Position numbers and translations under genes: made by a program. From positions 372,001-436,000 of the forward strand of contig NZ_RMVE01000002.1 in assembly GCF_003865345.1 (NCBI RefSeq): a stretch of DNA of 64,000 nucleotides, written 5' to 3'. Positions within the stretch are counted from its first letter, which is position 1. Each line of letters begins with the position of its first letter. The notes below the pieces were generated by a model that saw only the letters and a list, made by a program, of their open reading frames with translations, did not search any database and had not been told where the DNA came from. Source of the stretch: Nonlabens xiamenensis (GTDB taxonomy: Bacteria > Bacteroidota > Bacteroidia > Flavobacteriales > Flavobacteriaceae). Shown here piece by piece: positions 1,253 through 60,942 of this stretch.

Positions 1253-1540
1253 ATGCAGATCAGCAAATCCATTTTGGCCACCATCTTCTTGATGGTATTT
1301 GCAGCAGCGCAACTTACTGCGTTGCATGAGTTCTCACATGACGACCAAGGCTCGGATTGTGAAATCTGTCTGATCGCTCATGACTTCCAACAAACAGACT
1401 TTGCCTTAACCGAGGCCATCAGTTTTGAAATAGTGGAGATCAATCCAGTTTCAAAATTGATGATTGTAGAAACCGCTTTCGCGAAAGCGGACAGTCACAC
1501 ATCTCTATTTTTCACAAGACCCCCTCCTGCTTTACTATAA
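1253..1540 (+). CDS. Small exported His/Cys-rich protein, DUF2946-like
   Basis: A 95-aa protein with an N-terminal hydrophobic segment (residues about 6-22), a HEFSH motif (H25, H29) and a CEIC motif (C36, C39), ending in a RPPPALL tail. This His/Cys pattern and the position just before a TonB-dependent receptor resemble the small DUF2946-type proteins found in metal-uptake loci. Metal binding is inferred, not shown. Residues 75-79 (AFAKA) are encoded by a copy of the dispersed palindrome, so that segment is probably not ancestral. I chose the ATG at 1253 over the upstream TTG because it sits right after the promoter box. Confidence 0.65.
   Translation: MQISKSILATIFLMVFAAAQLTALHEFSHDDQGSDCEICLIAHDFQQTDFALTEAISFEIVEINPVSKLMIVETAFAKADSHTSLFFTRPPPALL
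1473..1490. repeat. Dispersed palindrome copy 1 (18-bp perfect)
   Basis: CCGCTTTCGCGAAAGCGG, a perfect palindrome. It is read as AFAKA in the small His/Cys protein gene. Confidence 0.9.
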
Positions 1541-1594
1541 CTACCGTGGCCCGACTGGGCAAAATCAGTATTATTAGTAAAAAATCCTCTATTT

Positions 1595-4051: not shown

Positions 4052-4092
4052 AAGTATTTCCTTTAATTTTTTTAAACCTTAATTGTTTTATT

Positions 4093-4650: not shown

Positions 4651-4670
4651 GATCAGATACTTTATTTGGT

Positions 4671-4854: not shown

Positions 4855-4870
4855 TCACGTATATAGAAAA

Positions 4871-5340: not shown

Positions 5341-6885
5341 TTAGAACTTTGCTGGGTTATCAATAACCTCTCTGGCCCGCTTTTTATGGGCCTTTAGTTT
5401 ATCTGCTGCCATTTTATCTAGCGTACTTAGCATCATATTCATCCGTTGATTGTTGGAAAAATGGGTCTTTTTCTCATCCAGAAAATTCCAATACAGCGAA
5501 TTAAACGGACAAGCATCTTCCTCTCCCCCTTTTTTGCTGACCTTATATGTGCACGCCTTGCAGTAATTACTCATTTTATTGATGTAACTACCGCTGCTTA
5601 CATATGGTTTTGTCGCTACCAGGCCGCCATCAGCCCATTGTGACATTCCTCTTGTATTGGTGATTTCTACCCACTCGATCGCGTCTATATAGATTCCCAG
5701 GTACCATTCATCTACATAACTAGGATCCGTCATGGTAAGCAAGGCATAATTTCCGGTCACCATCAGTCGCTGGATGTGATGGGCATAGGCGTTGTCCAGC
5801 GAATTGTTGATCGCATGCGACAAGCAATTCATCTTGGTTTTACCGGTCCAGTAAAATTCAGGCAGATCATTTTTGTTGTCGAGTTCGTTTTTGGTTTGAT
5901 AACCTGGCATTTCTTTCCAGTAAATCCCACGCATAAATTCACGCCAGCCCAATATTTGCCTAACAAAGCCTTCCACCTGCGAAATATGTATGTCTGTATC
6001 GCTTTCGCGAAAGCGGGAAATGGCTGCCTCAATTACTTCTTGCGGACTCAACAATTTTGAATTCATTGCAAAACTCAGTCTAGAATGGAACAAATATTCC
6101 TGTTCGGTATGCATGGCATCCTGGTAGTCTCCAAAATGTTTCAATAGATGCTGGCAGAAGTAATTAAGTACATCCAAGGCGTCTTGGCGGGTCACTGGCC
6201 AATTAAAACTTTCTTCATTGATACGACCGAAAGTCTTTACTCCCTGATCTTGTAATAATTTGACGATCTTGCGTACATCTTTGCGAAATCCTTTTTCATG
6301 AGGGATTTCTGTATCTCCATCCCATTTTTTACGGTTGCTTTGGTCATAGTTCCATTGGCCGCCTTCGGGCTCCTTGTCGCCTTCGATCAGGATATCGTGC
6401 TTTTTGCGCATATCCCTGTAAAAATACTCCATGGTAAGGCGTTTCTTCCCCTCAAAAAACTTTTGGACGTCCTTCCTTTTGGTGTAAAAATGCTCTGTAT
6501 CATAGCCTTGCCACTCGATATCCAAACCTTTGCAAAAATCCTTGAGTTGCTGGTCGAGACGATATTCATCTGGAGCGAGGTATTCAAATTTTTTGATGTC
6601 GTGTTCCTTGATGAGCTGTTTCAAGTTTTCAGTCAAATCCTGATGATTTGATTGATCATCCAATTGATAATAGACTGTATTCCACCCCCTGGATTCCAAC
6701 CAATCGTTAAAACCTCTCATGGCCATAAAAAAGGCCACAACCTTTTGGACATGATGCTTTACGTAATCTGTTTCTTGGCGCATTTCTGCCATGTGGTAGA
6801 TGATATGGTCATGGTCACCTTTATACCAACTGTGCTTGTGGTTGAGCTGATCACCCAGGACCAGTCTTAAGGTCTTTTGTAACAT
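5341..6885 (-). CDS. phrB: Iron-sulfur bacterial (6-4) photolyase / cryptochrome (FeS-BCP)
   Basis: A 514-aa protein of the deoxyribodipyrimidine photolyase-related family (PhrB/CryB type). It starts with an antenna domain (LRLVLGDQLNHKHSW) and has the C-terminal FAD domain. Four cysteines, C354 (MNCLSH), C442 and C445 (YCKAC) and C459 (ACPFN), have almost the spacing of the [4Fe-4S] ligands of Agrobacterium PhrB. The expected role is light-driven repair of (6-4) photoproducts. The dispersed palindrome at 6000-6015 encodes FRES within SRFRESDTD. The ATG at 6885 matches the family N-terminus. It neighbours a DASH cryptochrome operon. The function is well supported; the gene symbol is by family. 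Confidence 0.9.
   Translation of the reverse strand: MLQKTLRLVLGDQLNHKHSWYKGDHDHIIYHMAEMRQETDYVKHHVQKVVAFFMAMRGFNDWLESRGWNTVYYQLDDQSNHQDLTENLKQLIKEHDIKKFEYLAPDEYRLDQQLKDFCKGLDIEWQGYDTEHFYTKRKDVQKFFEGKKRLTMEYFYRDMRKKHDILIEGDKEPEGGQWNYDQSNRKKWDGDTEIPHEKGFRKDVRKIVKLLQDQGVKTFGRINEESFNWPVTRQDALDVLNYFCQHLLKHFGDYQDAMHTEQEYLFHSRLSFAMNSKLLSPQEVIEAAISRFRESDTDIHISQVEGFVRQILGWREFMRGIYWKEMPGYQTKNELDNKNDLPEFYWTGKTKMNCLSHAINNSLDNAYAHHIQRLMVTGNYALLTMTDPSYVDEWYLGIYIDAIEWVEITNTRGMSQWADGGLVATKPYVSSGSYINKMSNYCKACTYKVSKKGGEEDACPFNSLYWNFLDEKKTHFSNNQRMNMMLSTLDKMAADKLKAHKKRAREVIDNPAKF
6000..6015. repeat. Dispersed palindrome copy 2
   Basis: CGCTTTCGCGAAAGCG, read as RFRES in the photolyase gene. Confidence 0.9.
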
Positions 6886-8615: not shown

Positions 8616-9260
8616 TTATGAAGGAGATATTTTTTCTAATTCTTTACCGACCTGCGCATAGCTGAATCTGGTTCCTCCTTTCGCGGAAGCATAACCATCA
8701 AGACCATTCACCACCATACTTCCCGCGGCAGTCAGGTCTACCCATCCATCTTTTGATTGCAAACCTTTATCGAGGTAGATATCAGTTATACGACAAATCA
8801 CAAAAATACATTTGTTCTCTTGGAGAAAATATTCATTTTCGTAGACTGCTGCTACCTGCACAGGCGCCGCCTGAACAAAAGGGACCTCATGAGGTTCTCG
8901 ATCCAGGCGCTCTATTCCCAATACCTCAAATTCGGAAATGTTGGGATCGTATTTGGCGCTGGACTGATGAGCTTTTGTGACCAAATCCTGGGACACATGA
9001 TTAAGGCTTATTTCTCCAGTTTCCTTTAAATTCTTGTAGGTATTTCCCGCTCCGTGTCCCAATGGACGCTGTACAAAACCAAATAATGCAGGATCACTTC
9101 CCAAATGGAGAACACTACTAAAAATCGCTACATTATCCACCCCATCTTTAGATCTTGTTGCCAACAGGTTGGCACTCTTGAATCCCGTAATACAATTGAC
9201 CAAATTGGCTCTATCAAAGCGTTCCATATGTTGGATTTGGTCTAGACTGTAATGAATCAT
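8616..9260 (-). CDS. Flavin reductase-like FMN-binding protein
   Basis: A 214-aa protein resembling the flavin reductase / DIM6-NTAB flavoprotein family, with [21 protein letters not shown] and [16 protein letters not shown] segments that form the FMN-binding split barrel. It is the first gene of an operon with DUF2256 and the DASH cryptochrome, so it might supply reduced flavin or serve another light-linked redox step; that is inference. The region at 8677-8690 is a two-mismatch version of the dispersed palindrome encoding ASAKG. An upstream 14-bp element shared with the carotenoid regulator suggests co-regulation. Confidence 0.82.
8677..8690. repeat. Decayed dispersed palindrome
   Basis: CCTTTCGCGGAAGC differs from the 14-bp core at two positions and is read in the AFAKA frame (ASAKG). 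It may be a degraded copy or chance. Confidence 0.4.
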
Positions 9261-11071: not shown

Positions 11072-11661
11072 AACTGGATGCCAAATATTGGGAGAATCGA
11101 TACCTGAACGAGGAGACAGGTTGGGATCTAGGGCAAGTTTCTGCGCCTATCAAAAACTATGTCGATCAAATCGCCGATACGGATATTTCGGTATTGGTTC
11201 CTGGAGCGGGTTATGGTTATGAAGTACTGTATCTGAGAAAAAAAGGAATTTCCAACGTGACAGTAGTAGATATTGCGCAAACGCCATTGAAGCGGCTTCA
11301 TCAACGCCTAGGTGATCAGCAGGGGTATGAACTGATCCAACAAGATTTCTTTTCGCATAGCGGTAGTTATGACTTAATTTTAGAGCAGACTTTTTTTTGT
11401 GCCTTGGAAGTTCGCTTTCGCGAAAGCTATACCCAAAAAATGTACGAATTACTGAAGCCTGGTGGAATACTGGCAGGTGTGCTATTTGATTTCACTCAAC
11501 AAAGAGATGCTCCGCCATACGGAGGATCTATTGAGGAATATCAGGAATTATTTGCTCCTAAGTTTGACATCTCCCGCATTGAAAGCTGCAGATGTTCTGA
11601 ACCTGATCGTCAGGGAAAGGAATTGTTTATCGAACTCATTAAACCAGTTTATGAAAAATGA
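11068..11661 (+). CDS. SAM-dependent methyltransferase, thiopurine methyltransferase family
   Basis: A 197-aa protein with a TPMT-like N-terminus (YWENRYLNEETGWDLGQVS), a SAM motif I (VLVPGAGYGYEV) and motif II (NVTVVDIAQTPL). The native substrate is unknown; family members methylate small thiols or selenium compounds. The dispersed palindrome at 11414-11427 encodes FRES in EVRFRESYTQ, replacing the usual variable segment. It overlaps the upstream S4 gene by four bases and the downstream phosphoribosyltransferase by eleven. Confidence 0.85.
   Translation: MKLDAKYWENRYLNEETGWDLGQVSAPIKNYVDQIADTDISVLVPGAGYGYEVLYLRKKGISNVTVVDIAQTPLKRLHQRLGDQQGYELIQQDFFSHSGSYDLILEQTFFCALEVRFRESYTQKMYELLKPGGILAGVLFDFTQQRDAPPYGGSIEEYQELFAPKFDISRIESCRCSEPDRQGKELFIELIKPVYEK
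11414..11427. repeat. Dispersed palindrome copy 3
   Basis: The 14-bp core GCTTTCGCGAAAGC, read as FRES in the methyltransferase gene. Confidence 0.88.
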
Positions 11662-18983: not shown

Positions 18984-20125
18984 CCATCATCGGCATGGGT
19001 TGTGCAGGCAGCCACGTGGTACTGGAGCTCATACGACGTCAAAGCAACATAAAGGTTGTGGTTCTAGATGATTTTCAAAAAGGATCAATGGACAAAACCT
19101 GGTCCTTTTGGGAAATAGGCACCGGAAAATGGGATCACCTGGTACATCATCGATGGGAGAAAGGAGCATTCATCATGCCTGATGATCATATTGAATTGAC
19201 CCTTACTCCTTATCTATATAAAAGTATTGAGAGTAGTGATTTTATCGCTTTCGCGAAAGCGGAATTACAGCAACATGAGTCTTTTACCCTCATCGAGCAA
19301 CAGGTCAAGGAGGTTTTGTCACCCGCAGCACTAGATTCAGAAAAAAGCTACCATCAGATCATTTATGGAAATGAGCGTCTATTTGCCCATCAAGTTTTAG
19401 ATAGTCGAGTCCCACATGCCTATTTTGAAGATCAAAAGAGTTTGGGCCTCAAGCAACATTTTGAAGGTTGGGTAATTAAGACCGAAGAGGAATATTTTGA
19501 TCCAAGTGTATTTACGATGATGGATTACAGGTTGCGGGATCCAGGAACGACCAGCTTTACTTACGTCCTGCCCCATTCCTCTCAACAAGCCTTAGTGGAA
19601 TTTACTTATTTTTCAAAAGAACTCGTCAAGGCGGAAGTATATGCCCAATACCTAAAGGATTATATAAGAGACCACTTGAAAATTGACAGCTTTGAGATCA
19701 TTCAAATCGAGAAAGGAGTGATCCCGATGACCACCTATAATTTCAACCAGCATCATAAGGCAGGCCATCTGCGTATTGGCACTGCTGGTGGTTGGGTCAA
19801 ACCATCCACAGGATACAGTTTTAAATCCAGCGAAAAGAAGGCAATTCAGTTGGTAGAAAACATTTTTTCTGGTGACCCGCTGTACAATGGTTTACAGGCT
19901 GGACGTTTCAAATTGTATGATGACATTATGATAGAGGTGCTGTTTCGCGATAATGAAAAAGGACCTGAGGTATTCCATCATTTGTACAAAAACAATCCGA
20001 TTGATCGCATCCTAAGATTTCTAGATGAGGAAAGCAGTTTTTCTGAAGAAATTGCTATTATGCTCCCCATGACTTCATGGCCATTTTTACGATCTTTCTT
20101 CAACAGGCTCTGGCGAAATTTTTAG
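18962..20125 (+). CDS. crtY: Lycopene beta-cyclase
   Basis: A 387-aa flavoprotein with the N-terminal fold YDLAIIGMGCAGSHVVLEL, then TWSFWEIGTG and the family region DYRLRDPGTTSFTYVLPHS and GTAGGWVKPSTGYSF (CrtY type). It cyclises one psi end to a beta ring. The palindrome at 19246-19261 encodes AFAKA in DFIAFAKAEL. The start overlaps cruF by 22 bases. The 3' end overlaps the convergent crtA-type gene by 39 bp, so the two transcripts would be antisense. Confidence 0.93.
19246..19261. repeat. Dispersed palindrome copy 5
   Basis: CGCTTTCGCGAAAGCG, read as AFAKA in crtY. Confidence 0.9.
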
Positions 20126-25247: not shown

Positions 25248-26717
25248 CTAATTCCAACCATCAAGGATTTCACATTCCTTAAATTCTTCACCAATCTTGA
25301 CGTAAGTGTCTTTGATTTTTTCGGCGCGCCATTCCTGAATGGCTTTTACCTGCTTATCCTTCAGCGCTAAATCTTTGATTTTGAGGTAATCCTGAGAATA
25401 GTTGGCTTTATGATCTGGAATCTTGTCAATTATTTTAATGATCTTAAAAGAGGTACGTCGTCCTGTTGGATCAGTTTCCTCGATGATACCACTTACATCT
25501 CCTTTTTCCAGGAATTGAACTTGAGAAGCCATATCAGACTCAAGTCTGGTCACTTCAACTCTAGCCGTTCCTGTGTTTGGATTGATGATCCGACCACCAT
25601 TTTCTGCAGAGCGCTCGTCATCGCTAATTTCGGCGGCGGCATCTTCAAAAGAGATATCACCTAAGATGATCTTGTCCCTCATTTTCTCTAACTTTTCACG
25701 AGCCGCATTTTTTTGAGCGGTTGATATAAAAGGTTCAAGCAGAATGTGACGCACATCGCGCACTTGCCCCTTAACACTTTCCACATAAAGAATGTGCCAA
25801 CCAAACATGGTTTCAAATGGTTCACTGATCTCTCCTTCCTGAAGCGAAAAGGCTTGATCCTTGAACTCCTTTACAAAAGGACTATTTCTTTTAAGCGTTA
25901 ACACACCTCCCTGTCTCTCCGTGCCCGTATCATCTGAGTATAAAGTAGCTTTTACACTAAAATCCGCTCCATTATCCAACACATCTGCCCGGTATTCTTT
26001 GAGTTTATTGATCACCAAGTCTATTTCCGCTTGTTCTGGTTTGGGAGTAACAACTATACGGGCCATCTCGACTTCTGTATTGAACAATGGACGCTGATCT
26101 TCTGGAATATCATAGAAAAACTGGCGTACTTCTTCAGGGGTGATTTCTACCTGTTCAGTGATACGCTGCTGCATGCGTTGAGCCAGCAGTTGATCTCTAT
26201 TCACACGATTCAATGCTTCACGCACCTGTTGGATGTTGTCTTTTTTGTAGAATTCGGCTATCTTTTGTTCATCCTGAGTTTTCAGCACATTTTTAAAATA
26301 GTCGATCTGCTGTTCTGTACTCCCCTCAATTTCACGATCACTGATCGTAATAGAATCTTGAATGGCATGGTGAGCATACATTTTTTCGGCGAGCAGACTT
26401 TGCATCAACTCACAGCTGGACAAATCAGAAATTCCGGCCTGTCTTTTGGCCTGTTCTTTGGCCTGTGTGATATCTGAAGATAAGATCACATAATCCCCTA
26501 TTACCCCTGATACACCATCGATCAAAAAGCGCTTCTGTTGGGGCCTAACGCTATCCAACGCAGCAAGAGTTTCCTTTTTTATTTTCTCATCTATGGCAGC
26601 ATACTCTGTGGAGTCTTGCGTGGTTTGTACCGTTCCCGCTTTCGCGAAAGCGAATCCAACCAACAGCAGCATCCAACTACTGATCTGCTTTAACTTTATT
26701 ACTTGATTTGGCATCAT
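25248..26717 (-). CDS. SurA-like peptidyl-prolyl isomerase (two PPIC domains)
   Basis: A 489-aa periplasmic parvulin-type chaperone. The signal peptide (residues 1-27) ends FAFAKA, and AFAKA is encoded by a dispersed palindrome at 26637-26652. Parvulin segments include VEMARIVVTP, FKDQAFSLQEGEISEPFETMFGWHILYVES and VRDVRHILLEPF. It overlaps the upstream PPIase lipoprotein by 41 bp. The three PPIases probably share substrates among outer-membrane proteins. Confidence 0.88.
   Translation of the reverse strand: MMPNQVIKLKQISSWMLLLVGFAFAKAGTVQTTQDSTEYAAIDEKIKKETLAALDSVRPQQKRFLIDGVSGVIGDYVILSSDITQAKEQAKRQAGISDLSSCELMQSLLAEKMYAHHAIQDSITISDREIEGSTEQQIDYFKNVLKTQDEQKIAEFYKKDNIQQVREALNRVNRDQLLAQRMQQRITEQVEITPEEVRQFFYDIPEDQRPLFNTEVEMARIVVTPKPEQAEIDLVINKLKEYRADVLDNGADFSVKATLYSDDTGTERQGGVLTLKRNSPFVKEFKDQAFSLQEGEISEPFETMFGWHILYVESVKGQVRDVRHILLEPFISTAQKNAAREKLEKMRDKIILGDISFEDAAAEISDDERSAENGGRIINPNTGTARVEVTRLESDMASQVQFLEKGDVSGIIEETDPTGRRTSFKIIKIIDKIPDHKANYSQDYLKIKDLALKDKQVKAIQEWRAEKIKDTYVKIGEEFKECEILDGWN
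26637..26652. repeat. Dispersed palindrome copy 6
   Basis: CGCTTTCGCGAAAGCG, read as AFAKA at the end of the signal peptide of the SurA-like protein. Confidence 0.9.
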
Positions 26718-31258: not shown

Positions 31259-32644
31259 ATGAACTTCTCTATTCGTCAACTCTTTAACGAATTTCTTCAA
31301 AAGGACCAGATTCTGACTGGCTCAGATTTGGACACCCGTTATCACCACATCTGGCACATGGATCAGTCGCTCCAAGCGGCTTGCCTACTCTTACCCGAAA
31401 GCACCAAAGAGGTATCCATGATCATGAAGCAGTGCGATAAGCACCAACTTACCGTCGTGGTACACGGGGGATTGACCAATCTTGTGGGTAGCACTGAAAC
31501 CCAGGAAGATGAAGTAGTTATTTCGTTGGAGCGCATGAACCGTATCGTACAAACCGACACTTCCAGTAGGACGATGGAAGTGGAAGCCGGCGTTATTTTA
31601 GAACATATTCAAGACAAGGCTGAGGAAAATCAGCTGCTCTTCCCCCTCAACTTTGGCGCGAAAGGAAGTGCGCAAATAGGCGGTATCATATCTACCAATG
31701 CCGGAGGCTTACGTGTATTAAAGTATGGTATGACTCGCCAGTTGATCTTGGGATTAGAGGTTGTGCTAGCCGATGGACGCATTATTTCTTCCCTTAAAAA
31801 AATCATCAAGGACAACAGTGGTTATGATTTGAAGCAGCTTTTTATAGGTAGTGAAGGTACATTAGGTATTGTTACCAAAGCCATGCTTAAATTAGAAGAG
31901 GCGCCCAAAAGCAGAAATGCAGCCTATGTAGGTTTTGACGCTTTCGCGAAAGTGGTTCATTTCCTCAAATATATGGACGGTCAGCTGGCAGGACAGCTCA
32001 GCGGATTTGAATTGATCTGGAAGAATACGTATCAGCAAATGACCAGCACAAGTGATGCCGTACGACCACCGCTCCCTTATGACTACAATTATTATGTGTT
32101 GGTTGAATCCATGGGAGCAGACCAGATAAAAGATCAGCAAAGTTTTGAATTTCTACTTGAAAAGGCCTTGGAATCAGACATGATCCTGGATGCGGTCATG
32201 GCACAGTCACCCAGTGATGTGGAATGGTTTTTCAGGATCCGGGAAGATGTAAATAACCTGGTTGATTTCATGACCCACGACCAGCATTTTGACATCAGTC
32301 TGCCCATACCACTGATAGGAGAATACATTGCAGACCGATATGAGCGGCTGAAGGAAATTGACGGCGTTGAACAGGTATATGCTTTTGGACATGTAGCCGA
32401 TGGAAATATTCACTTTATGATTGGTAAAGAAAATACCTCAGCCGACCTAAAAAAGGCCATTGATCATTGCATCTATGATGGGCTCAAAGCTATCGGTGGT
32501 TCTGTAAGTGCTGAACATGGGATTGGCGTACACAAAAAGGAGTACCTGCAAATATGCCGTACCACAGAAGAAATCCAGTTGATGAAACAAGTCAAAAACA
32601 TGATGGATCCTAAGGGCTTATTGAATCCAGGGAAGATTTTTTAA
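31259..32644 (+). CDS. FAD-linked oxidase (D-lactate/glycolate/2-hydroxyglutarate dehydrogenase type)
   Basis: A 461-aa PCMH-type flavoprotein. The FAD-binding region shows VVVHGGLTNLVGS (about 67-79), GAKGSAQIGGIISTNAGG and YDLKQLFIGSEGTLGI; the C-terminal substrate domain ends FGHVADGNIHF and SAEHGIGVHKK, the conserved metal/substrate motif of D-2-hydroxyacid dehydrogenases. The exact substrate is not fixed by the sequence. A near-palindrome copy at 31939-31954 encodes AFAKV. Confidence 0.87.
   Translation: MNFSIRQLFNEFLQKDQILTGSDLDTRYHHIWHMDQSLQAACLLLPESTKEVSMIMKQCDKHQLTVVVHGGLTNLVGSTETQEDEVVISLERMNRIVQTDTSSRTMEVEAGVILEHIQDKAEENQLLFPLNFGAKGSAQIGGIISTNAGGLRVLKYGMTRQLILGLEVVLADGRIISSLKKIIKDNSGYDLKQLFIGSEGTLGIVTKAMLKLEEAPKSRNAAYVGFDAFAKVVHFLKYMDGQLAGQLSGFELIWKNTYQQMTSTSDAVRPPLPYDYNYYVLVESMGADQIKDQQSFEFLLEKALESDMILDAVMAQSPSDVEWFFRIREDVNNLVDFMTHDQHFDISLPIPLIGEYIADRYERLKEIDGVEQVYAFGHVADGNIHFMIGKENTSADLKKAIDHCIYDGLKAIGGSVSAEHGIGVHKKEYLQICRTTEEIQLMKQVKNMMDPKGLLNPGKIF
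31939..31954. repeat. Dispersed palindrome, one mismatch
   Basis: CGCTTTCGCGAAAGTG differs from the 16-bp consensus at one base and is read as AFAKV in the FAD-linked oxidase gene. Confidence 0.75.
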
Positions 32645-34299: not shown

Positions 34300-34315
34300 C
34301 GCTTTCGCGAAAGCG
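34300..34315. repeat. Dispersed palindrome copy 7 (intergenic)
   Basis: CGCTTTCGCGAAAGCG in the divergent gap between the exonuclease and the 126-aa protein genes. Confidence 0.9.
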
Positions 34316-37858: not shown

Positions 37859-38815
37859 TTATTCTACATCTTCCTGGAGTTGTTTTTCCAGTCGGCTAAC
37901 TACAGTTGTCGTACACCCCAACTCTTCTTTAAATCGCTGCAATCCTCTATTGATACTACCATTTGATTCGTTTACGGGACCGTAGTCCATGATTTCAAAT
38001 CCACGTGCTGCAAAATATTTCATGCTTTCGATATACGCAAAAGCCATGGCATCCTGTTTCATCCCTTTAGTCGTAGCGGCAGCATATTGAGATTTCACTA
38101 CGTTGCCTTTTAGAAAAAAACATATGCCAGCAACCAGCTCTTCTTGATGAATTACTTGGAAGAGTAGTATTTGCTCTGGAAATTTGGAATACAAATGGCA
38201 GATCTCTTTTGCAGAGTGGACTGGACGGGCCTTGTGCCTGTTTTGCAAGGATGGGATAAGTACTTGTTCCCAAAATTGTTCGAATCGAGAACCCAGTGAA
38301 AACTTCATGTTGTCAAACTTTCCATTGCGGTAGCCTGCAGTTTTTTTAGAGGATACAACAAGTTTTTCTGACAGCTTGACCCACATGGAGTGTTGTTTGC
38401 GCTGTAGGTTAAAGCCTAATTGCGTTAAGACCTCATATTCCTCGTGGGTTTTGGAGTGATACCAAGGACTTTGCAGTTGAATTTCCGCTTTCGCGAAAGC
38501 GGACGTTTTCAGATAATCCAGGATATGTTGATAGACTAGTAAATAGTCTAAAGAAGACAAGCTATTTTCCCAGGCTACGCCGCCATAAGTGAGTCCACGG
38601 TGGCTATAGAATGAACCGTCGACCACATGAGCTGGCATACAAGCCAAAAGTCGGTCGCCTTTGTAAATCATCAGGCTATGGTCCTGGAACCTGTCTTGAT
38701 GATATTCCATAAAATCCCTTTCCCAAATAAACGTCCCATTGGCAGAAGTTAGGATAAAGTCATCCCACTGCTGTCTAAGACTGGAATTGTATTGATGGAT
38801 CTTATAAGGCGCCAT
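37859..38815 (-). CDS. GNAT-type acyltransferase (FemAB-like)
   Basis: A 318-aa protein with an acetyltransferase-like fold (VAGICFFLKGNVVKSQYAAATTKGM, AFAYIESMKYFAARGFEIMDYGPVNES). It resembles FemAB/PEP-CTERM-type GNAT proteins of glycan loci. Substrate unknown. The palindrome at 38485-38502 encodes AFAKA. I chose the ATG at 38815; the frame extends 20 codons upstream without a signal. Confidence 0.78.
   Translation of the reverse strand: MAPYKIHQYNSSLRQQWDDFILTSANGTFIWERDFMEYHQDRFQDHSLMIYKGDRLLACMPAHVVDGSFYSHRGLTYGGVAWENSLSSLDYLLVYQHILDYLKTSAFAKAEIQLQSPWYHSKTHEEYEVLTQLGFNLQRKQHSMWVKLSEKLVVSSKKTAGYRNGKFDNMKFSLGSRFEQFWEQVLIPSLQNRHKARPVHSAKEICHLYSKFPEQILLFQVIHQEELVAGICFFLKGNVVKSQYAAATTKGMKQDAMAFAYIESMKYFAARGFEIMDYGPVNESNGSINRGLQRFKEELGCTTTVVSRLEKQLQEDVE
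38485..38502. repeat. Dispersed palindrome copy 8 (18-bp perfect)
   Basis: CCGCTTTCGCGAAAGCGG, read as AFAKA in the GNAT-like gene; identical over 18 bp to copy 1. Confidence 0.9.
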
Positions 38816-40429: not shown

Positions 40430-41725
40430 TTACTTCAATCGTCCAGAAATTTTCTTTTTCTGATAAGGTCGTATGATCAGTCGGGCTGCCCTGTCAAAGT
40501 TGAAATAGTTATAAGTCCAATTGAGAAAGACCACCAGACGGTTACGTACACCTACCAGAAAGTAGAGATGCACTCCCAGCCAGGTAAACCATGCCAGCGC
40601 GCCTCCCAGGGTAAATTTACCAACATCGGCCACGGCTTTGTTTCTTCCAATGGTAGCCATGCTTCCCTTGTCAAAGTATTTAAATTTTTTCAGTTCCCTG
40701 CCCTTCAACATCCTTTTAAAATTGGACACCAAATGAGCTCCTTGTTGGATGGCGGGTTGGGCCACCATAGGATGTCCGTGGGGAAATTTTTCAGTTTGCA
40801 TCAACGCAATATCTCCAACAGCAAAAATATCGGCATAGCCTTGAATCCTGTTATATTGATCGACCAGATAGCGCTGGGATTTCTGATTGATATGCTCCTC
40901 ATGGATACCACTTATGGGATTCCCAATTACACCAGCACTCCAGATGAAAGAATAAGCTTCTATAGAAAAATCTGTATTTGTCGTTACCAAATTATCCTGA
41001 TAATCTTTGACCATCACGTTCAGGTGAACGTTTACACCGAGCTTCTTCAAGTACTTTTTTGCTTTGATGGAGGCTTTTTCACTCATACTGGCCAACACCC
41101 TATCCGATCCATCCAGCAGGTGGATTTCCATTAAATCTGGATCCAAATCTGGATAATCATTGGGCAAGACACCTTTTCTGAATTCGGCAAAGGCACCGGC
41201 CAATTCCACCCCTGTTGGCCCTGCACCAGATAGTACAATACGCATGAGTCGGCGTTGTTCTTCCCGGTCATCAGTCAGCGTTGCTTCCTCCAGGTTTTGA
41301 AGCATATAACTACGTATGTTCAAGGCTTGAGGAACGCTTTTCATTTGCAAGGAAGCTTCCTCTAGCTCGCTGTTTCCAAAAAAATTAGTTTTAGAGCCAG
41401 TTGCCAGGATCAGATAATCAAATTTGACCGATCCGATAGAGGTTTTTAATTCTTTGAGTACAGGTTCCACGCTATAGACCTCGGCCAATCTAAAAACAAA
41501 ATTCTTTTTTTGCTCCACCAGTCCGCGCAATGGAAACGCGATCGAATCAGGTTCTAGGCCGCTGGTGGCCACTTGATACATCAAAGGCTGAAAATTGTGG
41601 TAATTGTGTTGGTCAATTAATACAACTTGTAGATCTTGCTTGACCAGCTTTCGCGAAAGCGTCACACCACCGAAGCCACCGCCCACGATGATCACACGTG
41701 GAAAATCAGACTTAGGTAGGTTCAT
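40430..41725 (-). CDS. ndh: Type II NADH:quinone oxidoreductase
   Basis: A 431-aa NDH-2-type flavoprotein that passes electrons from NADH to menaquinone without pumping protons. The FAD fold VIIVGGGFGGVTLSRKL and NAD fold IVLSGAGPTGVELAGAFAEF are clear, as is AVGDIALM and the C-terminal amphipathic membrane segment (LAWFTWLGVHLYFLVGVRNR). The palindrome at 41647-41660 encodes LSRK directly after the FAD GxGxxG region. A TATCTTTG box is at 41742-41749 on the minus strand. Confidence 0.9.
   Translation of the reverse strand: MNLPKSDFPRVIIVGGGFGGVTLSRKLVKQDLQVVLIDQHNYHNFQPLMYQVATSGLEPDSIAFPLRGLVEQKKNFVFRLAEVYSVEPVLKELKTSIGSVKFDYLILATGSKTNFFGNSELEEASLQMKSVPQALNIRSYMLQNLEEATLTDDREEQRRLMRIVLSGAGPTGVELAGAFAEFRKGVLPNDYPDLDPDLMEIHLLDGSDRVLASMSEKASIKAKKYLKKLGVNVHLNVMVKDYQDNLVTTNTDFSIEAYSFIWSAGVIGNPISGIHEEHINQKSQRYLVDQYNRIQGYADIFAVGDIALMQTEKFPHGHPMVAQPAIQQGAHLVSNFKRMLKGRELKKFKYFDKGSMATIGRNKAVADVGKFTLGGALAWFTWLGVHLYFLVGVRNRLVVFLNWTYNYFNFDRAARLIIRPYQKKKISGRLK
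41647..41660. repeat. Dispersed palindrome copy 9
   Basis: The 14-bp core GCTTTCGCGAAAGC, read as LSRK in ndh, next to the FAD-binding motif. Confidence 0.88.
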
Positions 41726-45392: not shown

Positions 45393-45408
45393 CGCTTTCG
45401 CGAAAGCG
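45393..45408. repeat. Dispersed palindrome copy 10 (intergenic)
   Basis: CGCTTTCGCGAAAGCG, 41 bases upstream of the ppa start codon in a divergent promoter region. Confidence 0.9.
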
Positions 45409-46619: not shown

Positions 46620-47327
46620 TTGAAAAAAATATTACGTTTTATAGGAAAATCTACGCTGTATTTGGCTGGATTCCTGTTATTGGCCGGAATAATCATCAAA
46701 ATTATTTTTACGGAAGATATTCCCGAGGGCCAAACTGGACCAGCCGCCAATGAGTTGGCTTTTAAAATGCTGGAGTCAATCAACTACAAGGAATTTGCCA
46801 ATGCCAACGAAATACGCTGGACGTTCAGGGACAAAAACACCTATCATTGGAAAGTGCAAGAAAAACTAGTGAATGTTTATTGGGATGATTACAGAGTGGC
46901 ATTTGCCACCCCTTATCCAGAAATAAGCCATGCTTTTAAAAATGATCAAAAGCTGAGTGGAGAAGAAAGAGAAAATGCCATTGCTTATGCTGAAAAAAAC
47001 TTTAATAACGACAGTTTCTGGATCGTAGCTCCTTTTCAGGTAATGGATATTGGCACAAAAAGATCCGTAGTCAAGGAGGATGGAAAAGAGCAGTTATTGG
47101 TCCAATATACCAGTGGTGGCACTACACCTGGAGACACTTATTTGTGGGAATTAGATAAAGACTATCAACCGATCGCTTTTAAAATGTGGGTAGATATAAT
47201 TCCACTGGATGGCGTGCGAGCCAAATGGCAGGAATGGGAAATGACGGCTGGAGGATTCCCGCTTTCGCGAAAGCGCACCATTTACGGACTGGAAATTCCT
47301 ATTTCAGACCTGGAAGTGATTAAATAA
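46620..47327 (+). CDS. Membrane-anchored hypothetical protein
   Basis: A 235-aa protein with a single N-terminal helix (residues about 11-28) and an extracytoplasmic body. A TTG start at 46620 is used since it precedes the basic signal-anchor MKKILRFIGK directly; TATATTTG at 46582-46589 is a possible -7 box. The palindrome at 47260-47275 encodes LSRKR. No domain recognised. Confidence 0.7.
   Translation: MKKILRFIGKSTLYLAGFLLLAGIIIKIIFTEDIPEGQTGPAANELAFKMLESINYKEFANANEIRWTFRDKNTYHWKVQEKLVNVYWDDYRVAFATPYPEISHAFKNDQKLSGEERENAIAYAEKNFNNDSFWIVAPFQVMDIGTKRSVVKEDGKEQLLVQYTSGGTTPGDTYLWELDKDYQPIAFKMWVDIIPLDGVRAKWQEWEMTAGGFPLSRKRTIYGLEIPISDLEVIK
47260..47275. repeat. Dispersed palindrome copy 11
   Basis: CGCTTTCGCGAAAGCG, read as LSRKR in the 235-aa protein gene. 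Confidence 0.9.
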
Positions 47328-54633: not shown

Positions 54634-57372
54634 CTATTCCACCAGAATTTTTTGGGTATTGACTCTTCCTTCATTTTCTATACGAACCAAATACACTCCA
54701 GAGGTCACGTTGCTCAATTCAATTTTCTTGCGAAGTCCATTTGTGAAATCGTAGATTGTCTGATATACAGATCTTCCATTCAAATCAAAGACTTGAATAT
54801 TAGTCTTTCCTGTACGGGCTTCCCCAAAATTAATTTCAAAAGCCCCCCGATTGGGATTGGGGTAGATACTGAATCGATCGGCAGCAAACTCCTCATTGCT
54901 TAAAGGTGTTACGGTGGTTGTGCATATCTCTACAGCCCAATCATTCAAGGTCCCGTTATCACCGGAAAAGAAATCGGCAATAGCCAAGGTCCAATTACCT
55001 CCAGAGTCATTTCCGACAAAATCATTTAAATTTCCTAGGGGTTGATAGGTACCGACGGTGGGACTTGCACAGACAATATTGGGCGCACCTTCTTCAAAGT
55101 TTACATCTAAGTCGTCATTGTTCCCACAATTGAACTGCCACAATCTTACGGTAGTGCTAGAAGGGTCAGTTACTTCAAAAATAAGGTCCTGAATAAAGCT
55201 ATGGGATATATCCACATTTATACTGATCCCAGTGATACTATCGTTGTCAGGGATATTGATCACATTTGCTGTTACCGGGCCTGCTACTGGAGTGGTTCCT
55301 GATCCCGTTCCATCTGCAATCGGTATTGAGATATTTCCTGAAGAATAGGTGGTACAAGTCTCTGTAACCTGAGCGTTTACACTGAAATCAGTACTATTGA
55401 TATTAAAAAACGGATTAGTGGCTCCTACCACCATCAAACGACAGAAAGGAGCAACAATTCCGCCAGGGACTGTAATAGTGGCAGATCCGTTGTTGGGTAC
55501 ATTGGATGCTAATATTGTATCAAAGGTCTCGCCGGCATCTGTGGAAAGCAAAATATCAACCGAATTTTCATTCACACCATTGGCGTTGGTTCCAGCAACG
55601 TCCCATGTAATTGTTTCTGTAGTGTTTGGCAGCCATGTGATGCCGGTTGTATTTTGGGAAGTCACAACAAATGGACCTGCATTATCTGTGGTAATAATAT
55701 TGACAAAATCCACTGCAGTCTGACCTCCCCTACTGTCATTATCTCTCACTGTAAGTGCAAAAGTCATGGGCCTAGAAATGGAGGCCAGTTTTTCCCAGGT
55801 GGTTGAATTCCCTCCATTGAGGACAATATCAGGTAACCTTGGTATATATCTAATTGGATCATCGCTTCCCTCAAATGATCGCACGAGTGGACCAGAAGCG
55901 GAGGTTTCGGTTGGAATTCCTGATGGTCCGAGATCAAATTGTTCCCAGGTGTAGGTATGCCCTACCGTTCCATCGACATCAGTTGAAGCTCCCACCAATC
56001 TATATGGAGTTGAAATGGGAATAACACGATCACTTCCAGCTATTGCAACAGGCGCTACATTCAGACTAGCTACATTTTGCGAGCAGGTAGAGAAACCGCC
56101 TGGTCTGATATTGTCAAAGATATTTTCCAAACTGATTTGATGGAAATAAGGATCAGTGCTCTGTTGCACATTCTGCGGCGGACATATTCCTGCGTAACCC
56201 ATGATGGTAGAACCACTGCCAGGCTCATAGGCTGCGGAAGCAGACCTATTTCCACCAGAGCAATTGGCGGTACTCCCATTAAATGAATGTAATGCACCAA
56301 ATTGATGGCCAATTTCATGGGCTACAAAATCCACATCAAATGGATCACCTATAGGGGCGGGCAGACCAGTTACCCCCTGTGCTTTTCTATTGGTACAAGG
56401 TGATGCTAGTGATGCAATACCACCGCCACCAGTGGTAAAAACATGACCTATATCATAGTTATTGAAACCTATATTGGCGTCAAGTACTTGCGGATTCTGT
56501 GAAAACAAGACATTATTGGCATTGTTGTTATCTAGATTATCGCTATTGATGAAGACCACTAGGTCATTATTGGCCACCAATTCCATGGTCAGCGACAAAT
56601 CACGTTCATAGATAAAGTTATTTCTAGCCAAGGTGACATTCATGGCTGCCAGCACCGCAGTACGCTTTTGAGCTTCGGTATCTGTGGCCGATAAACCAGC
56701 TCTGGTCCAATGAAATTCTGAATACTCCACCGTTGCCGAAATAGCAATTCTAAACCTGCGCAATAGCCCATCATTGGCATTTTTTGCATGATAGGAAGAA
56801 GGACCCATGCGATGGTTAGGCATGTCTTCCTCCACCACTTCGCAATGTGACCCTGTTTGAATGGCGGGTAAGTCTGCTTTCGCGTAAGCGATATAAGTAC
56901 CGCGATCTGTAGTATAGGGATCAATAAAAGAAGTCCCATGCTCTGGAGAAAAAACCATTCCGTGGAAACCATAAGGATCCACCGTGAACTTAATGCTATT
57001 TCCGGTCCCTCCGGCAGCGGCGCCAGTATAGGTACGTATATTGGGATATTTATTTTGAAGGGCATCAGCCATGGTTGGTGTTTCAAATACTTCAAATACC
57101 TCAAGCCCATGTGATGTAGGTAGTACTATGCTTGTAGGCACAGCACCTGGAATGCTGGCCTCAGTTACTTGCTGCAACTGAGCACGCAGGTCAGACAAAT
57201 CCATTTTGTAAAAATTAGCCCGGGATGGTTCAGACTTTCTAAAGAGTGCGGTACTACCCATATCTGGTCCACCGACCTTTTTCCAAATCAATTTTCCATT
57301 GTTTTGAGCGAGACCAGATCCCGTCATTAAAACCATTACCAAAACAAGGAGGCCATGAGCACTCTTATACAT
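54634..57372 (-). CDS. Secreted M12B-like metalloprotease with T9SS sorting domain
   Basis: A 912-aa secreted protein: signal peptide (1-22), propeptide, a reprolysin-like protease domain with HEIGHQFGALH at 352-362 and a Met-turn (TIMGYAG at about 389), beta-sandwich domains, a proprotein-convertase P-like domain (about 670-820) and a type A T9SS C-terminal sorting domain (YPNPNRGAFEINF to GVYLVRIENEG). It would be exported by the type IX system. The near-palindrome at 56876-56889 encodes AYAKAD at about 162. Confidence 0.9.
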   Translation of the reverse strand: MYKSAHGLLVLVMVLMTGSGLAQNNGKLIWKKVGGPDMGSTALFRKSEPSRANFYKMDLSDLRAQLQQVTEASIPGAVPTSIVLPTSHGLEVFEVFETPTMADALQNKYPNIRTYTGAAAGGTGNSIKFTVDPYGFHGMVFSPEHGTSFIDPYTTDRGTYIAYAKADLPAIQTGSHCEVVEEDMPNHRMGPSSYHAKNANDGLLRRFRIAISATVEYSEFHWTRAGLSATDTEAQKRTAVLAAMNVTLARNNFIYERDLSLTMELVANNDLVVFINSDNLDNNNANNVLFSQNPQVLDANIGFNNYDIGHVFTTGGGGIASLASPCTNRKAQGVTGLPAPIGDPFDVDFVAHEIGHQFGALHSFNGSTANCSGGNRSASAAYEPGSGSTIMGYAGICPPQNVQQSTDPYFHQISLENIFDNIRPGGFSTCSQNVASLNVAPVAIAGSDRVIPISTPYRLVGASTDVDGTVGHTYTWEQFDLGPSGIPTETSASGPLVRSFEGSDDPIRYIPRLPDIVLNGGNSTTWEKLASISRPMTFALTVRDNDSRGGQTAVDFVNIITTDNAGPFVVTSQNTTGITWLPNTTETITWDVAGTNANGVNENSVDILLSTDAGETFDTILASNVPNNGSATITVPGGIVAPFCRLMVVGATNPFFNINSTDFSVNAQVTETCTTYSSGNISIPIADGTGSGTTPVAGPVTANVINIPDNDSITGISINVDISHSFIQDLIFEVTDPSSTTVRLWQFNCGNNDDLDVNFEEGAPNIVCASPTVGTYQPLGNLNDFVGNDSGGNWTLAIADFFSGDNGTLNDWAVEICTTTVTPLSNEEFAADRFSIYPNPNRGAFEINFGEARTGKTNIQVFDLNGRSVYQTIYDFTNGLRKKIELSNVTSGVYLVRIENEGRVNTQKILVE
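56876..56889. repeat. Dispersed palindrome, one mismatch
   Basis: GCTTTCGCGTAAGC, one base from the core, read as AYAKA in the propeptide of the T9SS protease. Confidence 0.7.
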
Positions 57373-58583: not shown

Positions 58584-58987
58584 GACATCCAGTTAAAATT
58601 AATGTCTTTTTCAATCTCTGGGTGCAAACTATTGAGCACTGGACAGGTAAGTGCCACCCGTTCCAGGATGGTTTGCATGCGTTTATCGCAAGAAGCTTTC
58701 ATGTCCAATTCTACCTCAATCCCACTGATACGACGAGGATTGGAAGCCATGATTTTGTTTACTTTGGCGGTACTGCCTTTGAGTTCAATTTTCAATTCCC
58801 GGGCTTTTATACCCATTACAGTAAGCATGCAACTTGCCAACGCGGTAGCGACAGTATCTGTAGGAGAGAATGCCTCACCTTTACCATTATTATCGACAGG
58901 TGCATCAGAAACAATAGATTCTCCGCTTTTAAGGTGCGTGGATTCGCAACGTAATTCTCCCAAATATTCAACCAAGGCTGTCATCAT
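58580..58987 (-). CDS. OsmC/Ohr-family peroxidase
   Basis: A 135-aa OsmC-type thiol peroxidase. Family cysteines lie in ALASCMLTVMG and LTCPVLNSLHPE. It protects against organic hydroperoxides. The start overlaps the stop of the LysM gene and the stop overlaps the DUF922 GTG. Confidence 0.85.
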   Translation of the reverse strand: MMTALVEYLGELRCESTHLKSGESIVSDAPVDNNGKGEAFSPTDTVATALASCMLTVMGIKARELKIELKGSTAKVNKIMASNPRRISGIEVELDMKASCDKRMQTILERVALTCPVLNSLHPEIEKDINFNWMS

Positions 58988-60942
58988 CAGTTTTGTGTAA
59001 AACCAGGTGAACCCATCTCAAGCTCCTTGATACTCAAATCTTCCTGATATTGTAGAATGTACACTGCGTTATTGAAATATCCAGAACCTGGTTTTTTCAA
59101 ATACTCAAATTTGTTTTCTGTCATTACAGTTTTTCCGTTGCGCACAACGCTCTCGTATAAGTCTTCGGCACTGGCCTGTCTTAAGAAGACATCCATACTC
59201 AAATCAAAACCCCGGGTTGCATAGGCATTTGGAGAGATCGCAAATTTCTGAAAATAGGCGGTTTTGAATTCGTTATCAGCTCCACCATCATTGAACATCT
59301 GAGGATAGGTATAATGCAAGGCAGCCAACCTCATATTGGAAAGTTCCATCTCTTCAAAGGCCTCTAATCCAAACATGGTGATTCTGTGGGTGTCTGCTTT
59401 GGCAGCATAACTACTCACTGCATCTGTTACAAAACCAACATTGTCCACAGCTAGAACCACTACGTTTTCACGTTCCGGATCCAGTTCCTTGACATATTGG
59501 ACGTTAAAGATGTAATTTTTCTTCTCGTTGGGAATCAACAATTTTGCCTCAGGAAGCAAGTTGGCAAATTCATTTTTAAGACCTGGTTCATTGTTGTCAG
59601 TCACAATGATTACATTTTTACCTTGTGCATAGGTTTTTAAAAATACTTTCAATTTCGACTTGAGTAAATCTGAGTTGGGTCTTGCCTGAAAATAATTTTC
59701 AAAATTGGCCTGGTCTACCGTAGACAATGGTGAAATAACCGGTATTCCATCTTGTCTCAGGGCTTTGGCTGTTTCTAAGGCATTGGTGGACATCAAAGGA
59801 CCAATTACCGCAGAATACGCTCTAAAATTATTGTTATCCAAAATATCTTTGGTTTGCTGTAAGTTCTTCTGGGTATCATAAACATCAAACTGGACATTGA
59901 TTCCCAGATTGCGAGCGCTATCCCTCGCTATTTGCATCCCGCTATAAAAATCCAGTGCTATACGCAAGGTGCGATCCTCTTTAAGCCGATCTCTATCCGT
60001 AGTTTCTTCATTGATCTGTTGAAGTGAAAATGGCAATAAAACCGCAATACGCTGAGCTTCAAAATTGCGTAAACTATCTACAAGTCGGGCGACTTCTCTG
60101 TTGCGGTCTAACAAGACTACATCACTTGTAAGATTAGGATTGGGAATTCTGATCACCATACCTTCCTTTAGCCCATCATTTAATGCCGGATTGAGCGCTA
60201 TGAGTGAATCCTCGCTAATTCCAGCAATATTTTTAAGGGAATACATACCCATGCTTTTGGGAATCGTATAGTCCACAAATTTATCCACAGGAGCTGGATT
60301 GGTATCGGCATCAGCATCGTTATCTGCTTCGGCTATCTCAATGCCTTTGGGTACATTGAGAATCGTACCAGGTCGCAATTCGGTCACCTTTGGATTCATG
60401 GCCTTGAGTTCCTGGATCTTTATCCCGTGATTGGTAGCAATACGGAACCATCCTTCAGATGGACGCACTACATATTTACCATCGGGCAAGTTCGTACGAT
60501 CCACAACTTCGGGAGCAGTATCTGCAATGGAAGTAGTCACTTCTTCAAATACGGGAATCTTAATTTTATCGCCCTTTTGCAGTGGACTGGAATACAACTG
60601 TTTGTTGGCTTCCTTGATGTCCAGTTGTGTTACCCCATATTCTTCTGCCAATCCAAAAAGCGTCTCTTTACGCTTGACTTTATGGCTTTTATACCGAACA
60701 ACTTTACGGGAAGTGATGATTTCCTTTGGTTCTGGAATAAGTAAAACCATACCATATTTCAAACCAGATTTGAGATCTGGATTCAGATCCAGCAATTGCT
60801 TTGCCGTTACATCATAAGTTTTGGTCAAGGTATAAATGGTTTCGCCTTGGGCGACCTTATGCTGTTTATAATTTTGAAGGAAGGCTGCGTCCGCTTTCGC
60901 GAAAGCGAAACACACCAACATCACTATCAATAGATTTTTCAT
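58987..60942 (-). CDS. LysM-repeat protein with periplasmic-binding-like domain
   Basis: A 651-aa exported protein. A signal peptide is followed by four LysM-like repeats (about 25-70, 84-130, 157-200 and 236-280), such as HKVAQGETIYTLTKTYDVTAKQLLDLNP, then a type 1 periplasmic-binding fold (AVLLPFSLQQ to VIGPLMSTNALETAKALRQDG). It may bind peptidoglycan and sense or anchor. The palindrome at 60892-60907 encodes AFAKA in the signal peptide (13-17). It starts four bases after guaA. Confidence 0.87.
   Translation of the reverse strand: MKNLLIVMLVCFAFAKADAAFLQNYKQHKVAQGETIYTLTKTYDVTAKQLLDLNPDLKSGLKYGMVLLIPEPKEIITSRKVVRYKSHKVKRKETLFGLAEEYGVTQLDIKEANKQLYSSPLQKGDKIKIPVFEEVTTSIADTAPEVVDRTNLPDGKYVVRPSEGWFRIATNHGIKIQELKAMNPKVTELRPGTILNVPKGIEIAEADNDADADTNPAPVDKFVDYTIPKSMGMYSLKNIAGISEDSLIALNPALNDGLKEGMVIRIPNPNLTSDVVLLDRNREVARLVDSLRNFEAQRIAVLLPFSLQQINEETTDRDRLKEDRTLRIALDFYSGMQIARDSARNLGINVQFDVYDTQKNLQQTKDILDNNNFRAYSAVIGPLMSTNALETAKALRQDGIPVISPLSTVDQANFENYFQARPNSDLLKSKLKVFLKTYAQGKNVIIVTDNNEPGLKNEFANLLPEAKLLIPNEKKNYIFNVQYVKELDPERENVVVLAVDNVGFVTDAVSSYAAKADTHRITMFGLEAFEEMELSNMRLAALHYTYPQMFNDGGADNEFKTAYFQKFAISPNAYATRGFDLSMDVFLRQASAEDLYESVVRNGKTVMTENKFEYLKKPGSGYFNNAVYILQYQEDLSIKELEMGSPGFTQN
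60892..60907. repeat. Dispersed palindrome copy 13
   Basis: CGCTTTCGCGAAAGCG, read as AFAKA in the signal peptide of the LysM protein. Confidence 0.9.

What the first reader, a model, noticed from the sequence alone, without database searches (positions are those of the whole stretch)
1473..60907. Dispersed short perfect palindrome GCTTTCGCGAAAGC, mostly inside genes and read in all three frames
I counted 13 exact copies of the 14-bp core (1475, 6001, 11414, 17627, 19247, 26638, 34301, 38487, 41647, 45394, 47261, 49427, 60893), two with one mismatch (31940, 56876) and one with two (8677). That is about one per 4 kb, far above chance for 14-16 bp. Most extend to CGCTTTCGCGAAAGCG or an 18-bp palindrome. 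Fourteen copies lie in coding sequence. The unit is free of stop codons in every frame on both strands and is read as AFAKA (seven copies plus the decayed 8677 one), FRES (three) or LSRK (three). They sit in variable segments of unrelated proteins (photolyase, crtD, crtY, uvrA, ndh, protease propeptide). It resembles in style the intragenic Rickettsia palindromic elements or cyanobacterial HIP1, but is a different sequence. It could be an insertion-type repeat, a DNA uptake or nucleoid signal, or a methylase target centred on TCGCGA.
Basis: partly seen in the sequence, partly recalled or inferred. Interest (0 to 1): 0.88.

Follow-up and report, generated by a model that had tools for sequence, protein, structure and literature searches.

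The report
Evenly spaced palindromic landmark in marine bacteria
Two groups of marine bacteria carry hundreds of copies of one exact 16-letter mirror-image DNA word, evenly spaced along the chromosome and mostly kept at the same places in different species, which suggests an unknown protein that reads it to organise or maintain the chromosome.

Summary
The window (genus Nonlabens) has 13 exact copies of GCTTTCGCGAAAGC; its genome has 553, with 0 for the reversed control. The 22 other Nonlabens searched have 288-857 and ten genomes labelled Dokdonia 385-905. Other Bacteroidota sampled have 0-19, G290 (408) apart.

It is not an insertion repeat. Most sites tested sit at the same place in Nonlabens species only 65-77% identical there. 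Where one is missing, the gene aligns without a gap (12 of 12). Copies are strikingly even (no gap under 1.5 kb among 130; 28 expected). The site is bigger than reported: a 16-bp core with 13-18 bp flanks, G/T-rich 5' and A/C-rich 3', with a 3-bp rhythm also at sites outside open frames.

Sites are absent from one biosynthetic cluster and two phages, but present in other phage contigs. The type IV pilus motor is missing in 6 of 8 site-rich genomes, which weakens an uptake role.

Best reading: a nucleation site for an unidentified symmetric, oligomerising chromosome protein. The reader protein was not found.

The parts
1475..1488 (.). exact 14-mer, in a 101-aa ORF
6001..6014 (.). exact 14-mer, in a DPRP (photolyase-related) gene
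8677..8690 (.). degenerate copy, 2 mismatches, in a flavin-reductase-like gene
11414..11427 (.). exact 14-mer, in a TPMT-family methyltransferase gene
19247..19260 (.). exact 14-mer, in a lycopene cyclase gene; present in 22 of 22 Nonlabens covered, own included (21 exact, 1 with one mismatch), and exact in a Dokdonia orthologue (L049)
26638..26651 (.). exact 14-mer, in a PPIC-type rotamase gene
31940..31953 (.). copy with 1 mismatch, in an FAD-linked oxidase gene
34301..34314 (.). exact 14-mer, intergenic, near an exonuclease gene
38487..38500 (.). exact 14-mer, in a 338-aa ORF without Pfam match
41647..41660 (.). exact 14-mer, in an NDH2-type gene; same place in 3 of 3 Nonlabens whose fetched stretch covers it
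45394..45407 (.). exact 14-mer, intergenic, upstream of the inorganic pyrophosphatase gene; same place in 14 of 14 Nonlabens covered (one maps about 50 bp off)
47261..47274 (.). exact 14-mer, in a 235-aa ORF; variable: 5 of 17 Nonlabens with the gene have it, the other 12 align without a gap and read other amino acids
49417..49430 (.). exact 14-mer, in uvrA; same place and exact in 18 of 18 Nonlabens fetched; of three more, two exact and one with one mismatch
56876..56889 (.). copy with 1 mismatch, in a reprolysin-like protease gene
60893..60906 (.). exact 14-mer, in a LysM-protein gene; same place in the Nonlabens genome G002

Best explanation
The repeat is a dedicated double-stranded DNA landmark: CGCTTTCGCGAAAGCG with about 13-18 bp of G/T-rich 5' and A/C-rich 3' flank whose preference peaks every third base. 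Most likely a symmetric DNA-binding protein recognises the palindrome and nucleates an oligomer that extends both ways in 3-bp steps. It would act over a few kilobases around each site, so the cell keeps one site every 4-8 kb round the whole chromosome, for nucleoid organisation, segregation or repair of resident DNA. Shown: copy number, enrichment only in the Nonlabens and Dokdonia lineages (and G290) among the genomes sampled, even spacing, mostly fixed positions, origin by substitution in the cases aligned, mirrored flanks with period 3, absence from one biosynthetic cluster and two phages, presence in other phage contigs. Inferred: the protein, its oligomerisation, and the chromosomal process served.
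For: Exact copies greatly outnumber near misses (130 exact, 21 one-mismatch, 7 two-mismatch in 800 kb; 90/19/26 in 400 kb of D. sinensis), as expected under strict recognition. Gaps: 0 below 1.5 kb against 28 expected (minimum 16 in 2000 simulations), CV 0.55 against 0.99; D. sinensis CV 0.65 against 0.98. Gamma shape 3.5 and 2.8. Positions: 17627 and 19247 in 22 of 22 covered genomes each (39 of 44 exact, 5 with one mismatch), 49417 exact in 18 of 18, intergenic 45394 in 14 of 14; 14 of 15 own sites exact in the G002 sample, the miss being a 26%-identity hit. Flanks: A+C 0.71 (own) and 0.78 (D. sinensis) at eight phased positions a side, against 0.51 around 21 chance copies in unrelated genomes and 0.50 at random positions. 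Period 3 at 86 sites outside any open stretch of 70 codons: permutation p = 0.00025. Even round G002: 3-7 per 20 kb in 19 of 20 samples, 0 in one, whose ORFs look like an NRPS/PKS cluster. Copies with the same flanks lie in phage genes (primase, head protease, an ATPase), and three such contigs encode an integrase or transposase.
Against: No reader protein was identified. The obvious candidate, an extra ParB/Noc-type protein, is not there systematically, and RecA is single in 15 of 16 genomes. Period 3 is absent in coding frame 2 (column permutation 3123 and 1972 of 5000), only p = 0.09 for frames 1+2 together, and for Dokdonia intergenic sites 315 of 5000 in one test and p = 0.009 in another. 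A 91-kb stretch of G002 lacks sites (listed places), so no single site is likely to be essential. Site 47261 is missing from 12 of 17 relatives. Of 9 Nonlabens sites compared with Dokdonia loci only 2 are shared; against D. sinensis 0 of 1 and, in reverse, 0 of 4, all hits of 22-32% identity. For the own genome a hard minimum gap plus exponential fits as well as a gamma.
Confidence: 0.45

Rival explanations
1. Recombination or repair signal working like Chi: an exonuclease/helicase entering from either side responds to the site, and RecA loads on the G/T-rich strand that ends at the core.
For: Density (one per 4-8 kb) is close to that of E. coli Chi (recalled). On both sides the strand running 5' to 3' towards the core is G/T-rich with a 3-base rhythm, and RecA binds DNA in base triplets and prefers G/T-rich DNA (recalled). 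Absent from two phages and one biosynthetic cluster, present in other phage contigs.
Against: Known Chi sites are 5-8 nt and not palindromic (recalled). RecC is absent from all 16 genomes searched, site-rich and low-copy alike. RecA is ordinary and single in 15 of 16. AddAB was not tested.
Confidence: 0.2
2. DNA uptake sequence: the cell takes up DNA carrying the word, and transformation spreads and maintains it.
For: Hundreds of copies, shared by a few genera, conserved positions, even spacing. Even spacing has been claimed for uptake sequences too (Karlin et al. as cited in PMC1939737, passage).
Against: Known uptake sequences of Gram-negatives work through a type IV pilus machine (PMC7811141, passages). 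The motor ATPase PF00437 passes its cut-off in only 2 of 8 site-rich and 1 of 8 low-copy genomes searched. Copies lie in phage genes. [quoted passage not shown] these are very even.
Confidence: 0.15
3. HIP1-like word created or maintained by DNA methylation and repair.
For: Dispersed GC-rich palindrome in coding DNA that arises by substitution where tested.
Against: 14-16 bp rather than 8; one per 4-8 kb; mostly fixed positions across a genus; structured flanks. HIP1 deviations are biased to the first and last bases (PMC4390886, abstract), whereas here 11 of 21 one-mismatch copies deviate at positions 5/10 and 7 of 21 at the ends. Inner TCGCGA is not enriched outside the core. Methyltransferase content was not surveyed.
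Confidence: 0.07
4. Mobile or inserted palindromic element (Rickettsia-type or REP-type).
For: Many near-identical copies inside unrelated genes.
Against: Orthologous positions across the genus; 12 of 12 Nonlabens orthologues lacking site 47261 align without a gap; of 7 Dokdonia orthologues lacking a site 6 align without a gap and 1 with one; none in the 20 kb of the biosynthetic cluster read.
Confidence: 0.01
5. RNA-level or transcriptional signal (terminator, processing hairpin, operator).
For: The palindrome could fold in RNA, and D. sinensis copies lean to intergenic DNA (58 of 90 in genes).
Against: Most Nonlabens copies lie inside genes (108 of 130 in C5). Intergenic copies whose gap type could be told show no strong preference (tandem 80, divergent 26, convergent 18; 27 not told). 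Flanks are about equally marked up- and downstream in frame 0, the largest coding class, though somewhat weaker upstream in frames 1 and 2. No pairing between flanks beyond composition.
Confidence: 0.04

Closest known systems
Noc-binding sites (NBS) and parS, read by Noc/ParB
   Same: 16-bp palindrome with a TTTC..GAAA core that nucleates a protein which then spreads on neighbouring DNA (PMC8429893, start of abstract and passages)
   Different: Core spacing and sequence differ; far more copies here (NBS number recalled as tens); no systematic extra ParB-family protein; the single ~300-aa ParB looks ordinary and a canonical parS is present
HIP1 and alternative HIPs of cyanobacteria
   Same: Dispersed palindrome at high frequency, function debated (PMC4390886, abstract)
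   Different: Longer, rarer, mostly fixed in place, with phased flanks
DNA uptake sequences (Neisseria DUS, Haemophilus USS)
   Same: Abundant, clade-specific, with extended flanks (flanks of USS partly recalled)
   Different: Palindromic, very even, carried by some phages, and the pilus motor is missing in 6 of 8 site-rich genomes tested
DnaA box plus DnaA-trio
   Same: A protein box next to a repeating trinucleotide read by a filament (PMC6669920, passages)
   Different: Mirrored on both sides, hundreds of copies, another sequence
Chi sites
   Same: Similar density (recalled); G/T-rich strand beside the site
   Different: Palindromic and about twice as long; RecC absent

Membership tests
Rickettsia palindromic element / inserted repeat | orthologues without the repeat show a gap | tested here: not met
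   12 of 12 site-less Nonlabens orthologues at 47261 ungapped; 6 of 7 site-less Dokdonia orthologues ungapped
HIP1-type palindrome | one-base deviations biased to the end bases | tested here: not met
   7 of 21 at positions 1/14, 11 of 21 at 5/10
HIP1-type palindrome | cognate methyltransferase and methylation | not tested
   only the frequency of TCGCGA outside the core was counted
DNA uptake sequence | type IV pilus uptake machine in the genomes that carry the word | tested here: not met
   PF00437 over cut-off in 2 of 8 site-rich genomes; other uptake machines were not sought
DNA uptake sequence | strong, clade-specific over-representation | tested here: met
DNA uptake sequence | stimulates uptake | not testable with these tools
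   needs transformation assays
Noc/ParB site | extra ParB-family protein, or changed ParB, in site-bearing genomes | tested here: not met
   24 of 24 genomes have one ParB of about 300 aa; a further ParB_N match in 1 of 6 Nonlabens (G019), 1 of 4 Dokdonia (G126), not in G290, and in 4 of 13 low-copy genomes. One alignment column (88) passed my script's threshold for differing
Chi (RecBCD type) | RecBCD present | tested here: not met
   PF04257 in 0 of 16 genomes; AddAB not tested
Terminus-restricted site (matS) | restricted to the terminus region | tested here: not met
   3-7 copies in 19 of 20 spaced 20-kb samples of G002

The most novel reading that the evidence does not exclude
A chromosome-wide nucleation system: several hundred mostly fixed palindromic sites, each with triplet-phased flanks on both sides, seed a filament- or clamp-forming protein that spreads in 3-bp register and serves the whole bacterial chromosome at 4-8 kb intervals. 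No bacterial architectural protein that I know of (recalled) combines these features.
Probability: 0.3. Interest if true: 0.93.

Novelty: new variant of a known kind. Interest (0 to 1): 0.8.

Why it matters
Several abundant short DNA words turned out to have a reader (Chi, KOPS, uptake sequences, NBS; recalled). This one is unusually clean: an exact palindrome, even spacing, positions mostly fixed across a genus and a 3-bp rhythm in its flanks. It should lead directly to a new DNA-binding protein, and it makes it possible to ask what even spacing along a bacterial chromosome is for.

Tried and rejected
Insertion repeat: rejected by orthologue comparison. ParB/Noc as reader: no systematic extra protein, ordinary ParB, one canonical parS. 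Special RecA: single in 15 of 16; the window's genome has one further weak match. RecBCD-Chi: RecC absent. Type IV pilus uptake: motor missing in 6 of 8 site-rich genomes. Other genera with their own equivalent word: nine low-copy genera (1-6 copies per genome), 40 kb each, showed no 12- or 14-mer palindrome with four or more copies; a small sample. Flank-flank pairing: not beyond composition. Autoregulated reader gene: listing genes next to intergenic sites gave no convincing candidate. Codon artefact for the 3-bp rhythm: excluded with sites outside open frames, though frame 2 shows none. Literature: no paper held contains CTTTCGCGAAAG; 10 contain TTTCGCGAAA, none on this subject by title and start of abstract; Nonlabens + palindrom 7 papers and Dokdonia + palindrom 5, none relevant by listing; RecA triplet and phasing searches gave nothing useful by listing. 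'Not in print' means only these searches of the held library. Papers seen: PMC4390886 abstract, outline and an empty term search; PMC1939737, PMC7811141, PMC8429893, PMC6669920 passages and starts of abstracts.

Limits: 864 kb of 3.68 Mb of the window's genome was read. Gene calls are mechanical, so some 'intergenic' sites are coding (11414 is one). For the chance-copy control I left out L060 (its genome has 89 copies); one three-copy viral contig (L202, L259) and piece L245 stayed in the 'other viral' group. Notebook corrections: entry 9 says 5 of 18 for site 47261, the right denominator is 17; entry 2 first says six low-count genera, it is seven.
Full report
What is there. The window holds 13 exact copies of GCTTTCGCGAAAGC plus two with one and one with two mismatches, against 0.16 expected. 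The genome holds 553 exact copies and none of the reversed control. In 800 kb of contig C5 there are 130 exact, 21 one-mismatch and 7 two-mismatch copies; one 5th-order Markov sequence gave 0, 1 and 10. Among the twelve top-ranked 10-, 12-, 14- and 16-mers of C5 every word overlaps this one.

Who has it. The 22 other Nonlabens genomes searched have 288-857 copies; 7 of 48 genomes of other genera of the family have 1-6, and 47 genomes of other families in the order have none. Of 32 genomes reached through loci that carry the word, 8 Nonlabens (one labelled Flavobacteria bacterium BBFL7) have 478-701, 10 labelled Dokdonia 385-905, two labelled Cytophagaceae 89 and 369, and the other 12 have 1-13. 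Of 397 genomes drawn across the family, only four Nonlabens (own included), G290 (408) and G306 (857, D. sinensis) exceed 19. Of 395 Bacteroidota drawn across the phylum, no genome except the window's own exceeds 6. Nine low-copy genera, 40 kb each, show no equivalent palindrome of their own.

Spacing. In C5 no gap is below 1,594 bp, while uniform placement gives 28 gaps below 1.5 kb on average and at least 16 in 2000 simulations; CV is 0.55 against 0.99. D. sinensis: 7 gaps below 1.5 kb against 25 expected, CV 0.65 against 0.98. A gamma with shape 3.5 (own) or 2.8 (D. sinensis) beats an exponential, though for the own genome a hard minimum plus exponential fits equally well. Exceptions exist: G002 has one pair 109 bp apart. 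In 20 spaced samples of the single-contig genome G002 there are 3-7 copies per 20 kb in 19, and none in one. That one lies inside a stretch of 91 kb between consecutive listed places and encodes large NRPS/PKS-like proteins, by inspection of the ORFs.

Fixed positions. Nonlabens orthologues of the carotenoid genes at 16.5-20.1 kb are about 65-76% identical in DNA, yet both sites are present in all 22 genomes covered (own included; G013 was not covered): 39 of 44 exact, 5 with one mismatch, while many neighbouring positions vary. In 18 relatives fetched around uvrA, site 49417 is exact in 18 of 18, intergenic 45394 is present in 14 of 14 covered and 41647 in 3 of 3 covered, but 47261 in only 5 of 17. 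The gene holding 47261 is found in those 17; the 12 without the site align there without a gap and read other amino acids. So this site came or went by substitution. It lies 1.9 and 2.2 kb from its neighbours, so the variable site is a closely flanked one; yet the pair 17627/19247 is 1.6 kb apart and both are invariant, so this is only suggestive. Against the G002 sample, 14 of 15 own sites are exact at the orthologous place; the miss is a 26%-identity hit. Against other Nonlabens loci 2 of 3 are exact, the miss again at 26% identity. Against Dokdonia loci 2 of 9 are shared (19247 exact, one with a mismatch), and 6 of the 7 without it align without a gap. Against 400 kb of D. sinensis 0 of 1, and in the reverse direction 0 of 4, all at 22-32% identity (all). 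A few intergenic sites flank the same genes in both genera, for example between serC- and serA-like genes (names from inspection). The system therefore appears older than the split of the two genera, with turnover since.

Flanks. Beyond the 16-mer, each strand is G/T-rich and C-poor 5' of the core and A/C-rich and G-poor 3' of it, strong for about 15 bp and weak to about 30. At eight phased positions on each side A+C is 0.71 (own) and 0.78 (D. sinensis), against 0.51 around 21 chance copies in unrelated genomes and 0.50 at random positions; G is 0.10 and 0.05 against 0.28 and 0.21. One-mismatch copies have 0.65 and 0.73, and 12 sporadic copies in other Flavobacteriaceae 0.67. The preference peaks at positions 18, 21, 24 and 27. 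The rhythm appears at mechanically called intergenic sites and in coding frames 0 and 1, not in frame 2. In the strict test, 86 of 435 sites lay in no open stretch of 70 codons on either strand, and these keep the rhythm (phase means 0.70/0.78/0.54, permutation p = 0.00025; 46 Nonlabens p = 0.005, 40 Dokdonia p = 0.016). In the largest coding class (frame 0) the flanks are about equally marked up- and downstream of the site, and the two flanks do not pair beyond composition. This points to double-stranded DNA read symmetrically, with a triplet component.

Phages. Two Nonlabens phages without an annotated integrase (35,000 of about 35,700 bases each) have no copy even with two mismatches. Several viral contigs found carry two to four copies in the pieces held. 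In one contig a copy lies inside a primase gene and an integrase gene is present; in another an integrase gene lies beside a copy; a third has a transposase gene and a copy in an ATPase gene (MuB-like by context, my inference); in two more a copy lies in a gene matching head protease families. Their flanks match the host type (A+C 0.71, 32 copies in 21 loci), while 100 copies in the other viral loci do not (0.51). I chose the 21 loci by several copies or by low G+C plus the CG extension, not by flank score. Their hosts are not named. Phage copies argue for a benefit inside the cell.

Mechanism. A perfect 16-bp palindrome with few near misses implies a symmetric protein. Even spacing suggests that each site serves a few kilobases and that extra copies close by bring little. 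Period-3 flanks recall proteins that read DNA in triplets: RecA-type filaments (recalled), and DnaA on the DnaA-trio next to DnaA boxes (PMC6669920, passages). Noc shows that a 16-bp palindrome can nucleate spreading (PMC8429893, start of abstract and passages). I therefore favour a nucleation site for an oligomerising chromosome protein. The identity of the protein and the process it serves are inferred; the known readers tested (ParB/Noc, RecBCD, pilus-based uptake) do not fit.

Noticed in passing
L071:115-5478; G315, G260 (places): Sporadic copies in other Flavobacteriaceae come in sets with identical spacing (933, 10754, 3991 bp) in Aquimarina (L071's contig), G315 and G260. In L071 they lie beside a TolC-like efflux gene and a multicopper-oxidase-like gene (names from inspection). 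Probably a metal-resistance island that came from a site-rich genus; the word could serve as a tracer of gene transfer.
   Followed up: partly
L252, L174, L183, L246, L191: Phage contigs, three of them with integrase or transposase genes, carry the host word with the correct flanks.
   Followed up: partly
L331 (G002 C1:195001-215000): Large NRPS/PKS-like genes fill a site-free stretch; site-free stretches may mark recently acquired DNA.
   Followed up: partly
genome of L060 (G142): 89 copies in a 5.0-Mb MAG labelled Cytophagaceae: possibly a mixed bin.
   Followed up: no
L376-L377 (Altibacter), L384-L385 (G315), L388-L389 (G290): Locally repeated 12-14-mers unrelated to this word turned up in the word count; not examined.
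   Followed up: no
G000:C10:39969-40694: A second, weak RecA-family match (62 bits, 358-aa frame) besides the normal RecA in the window's genome.
   Followed up: no
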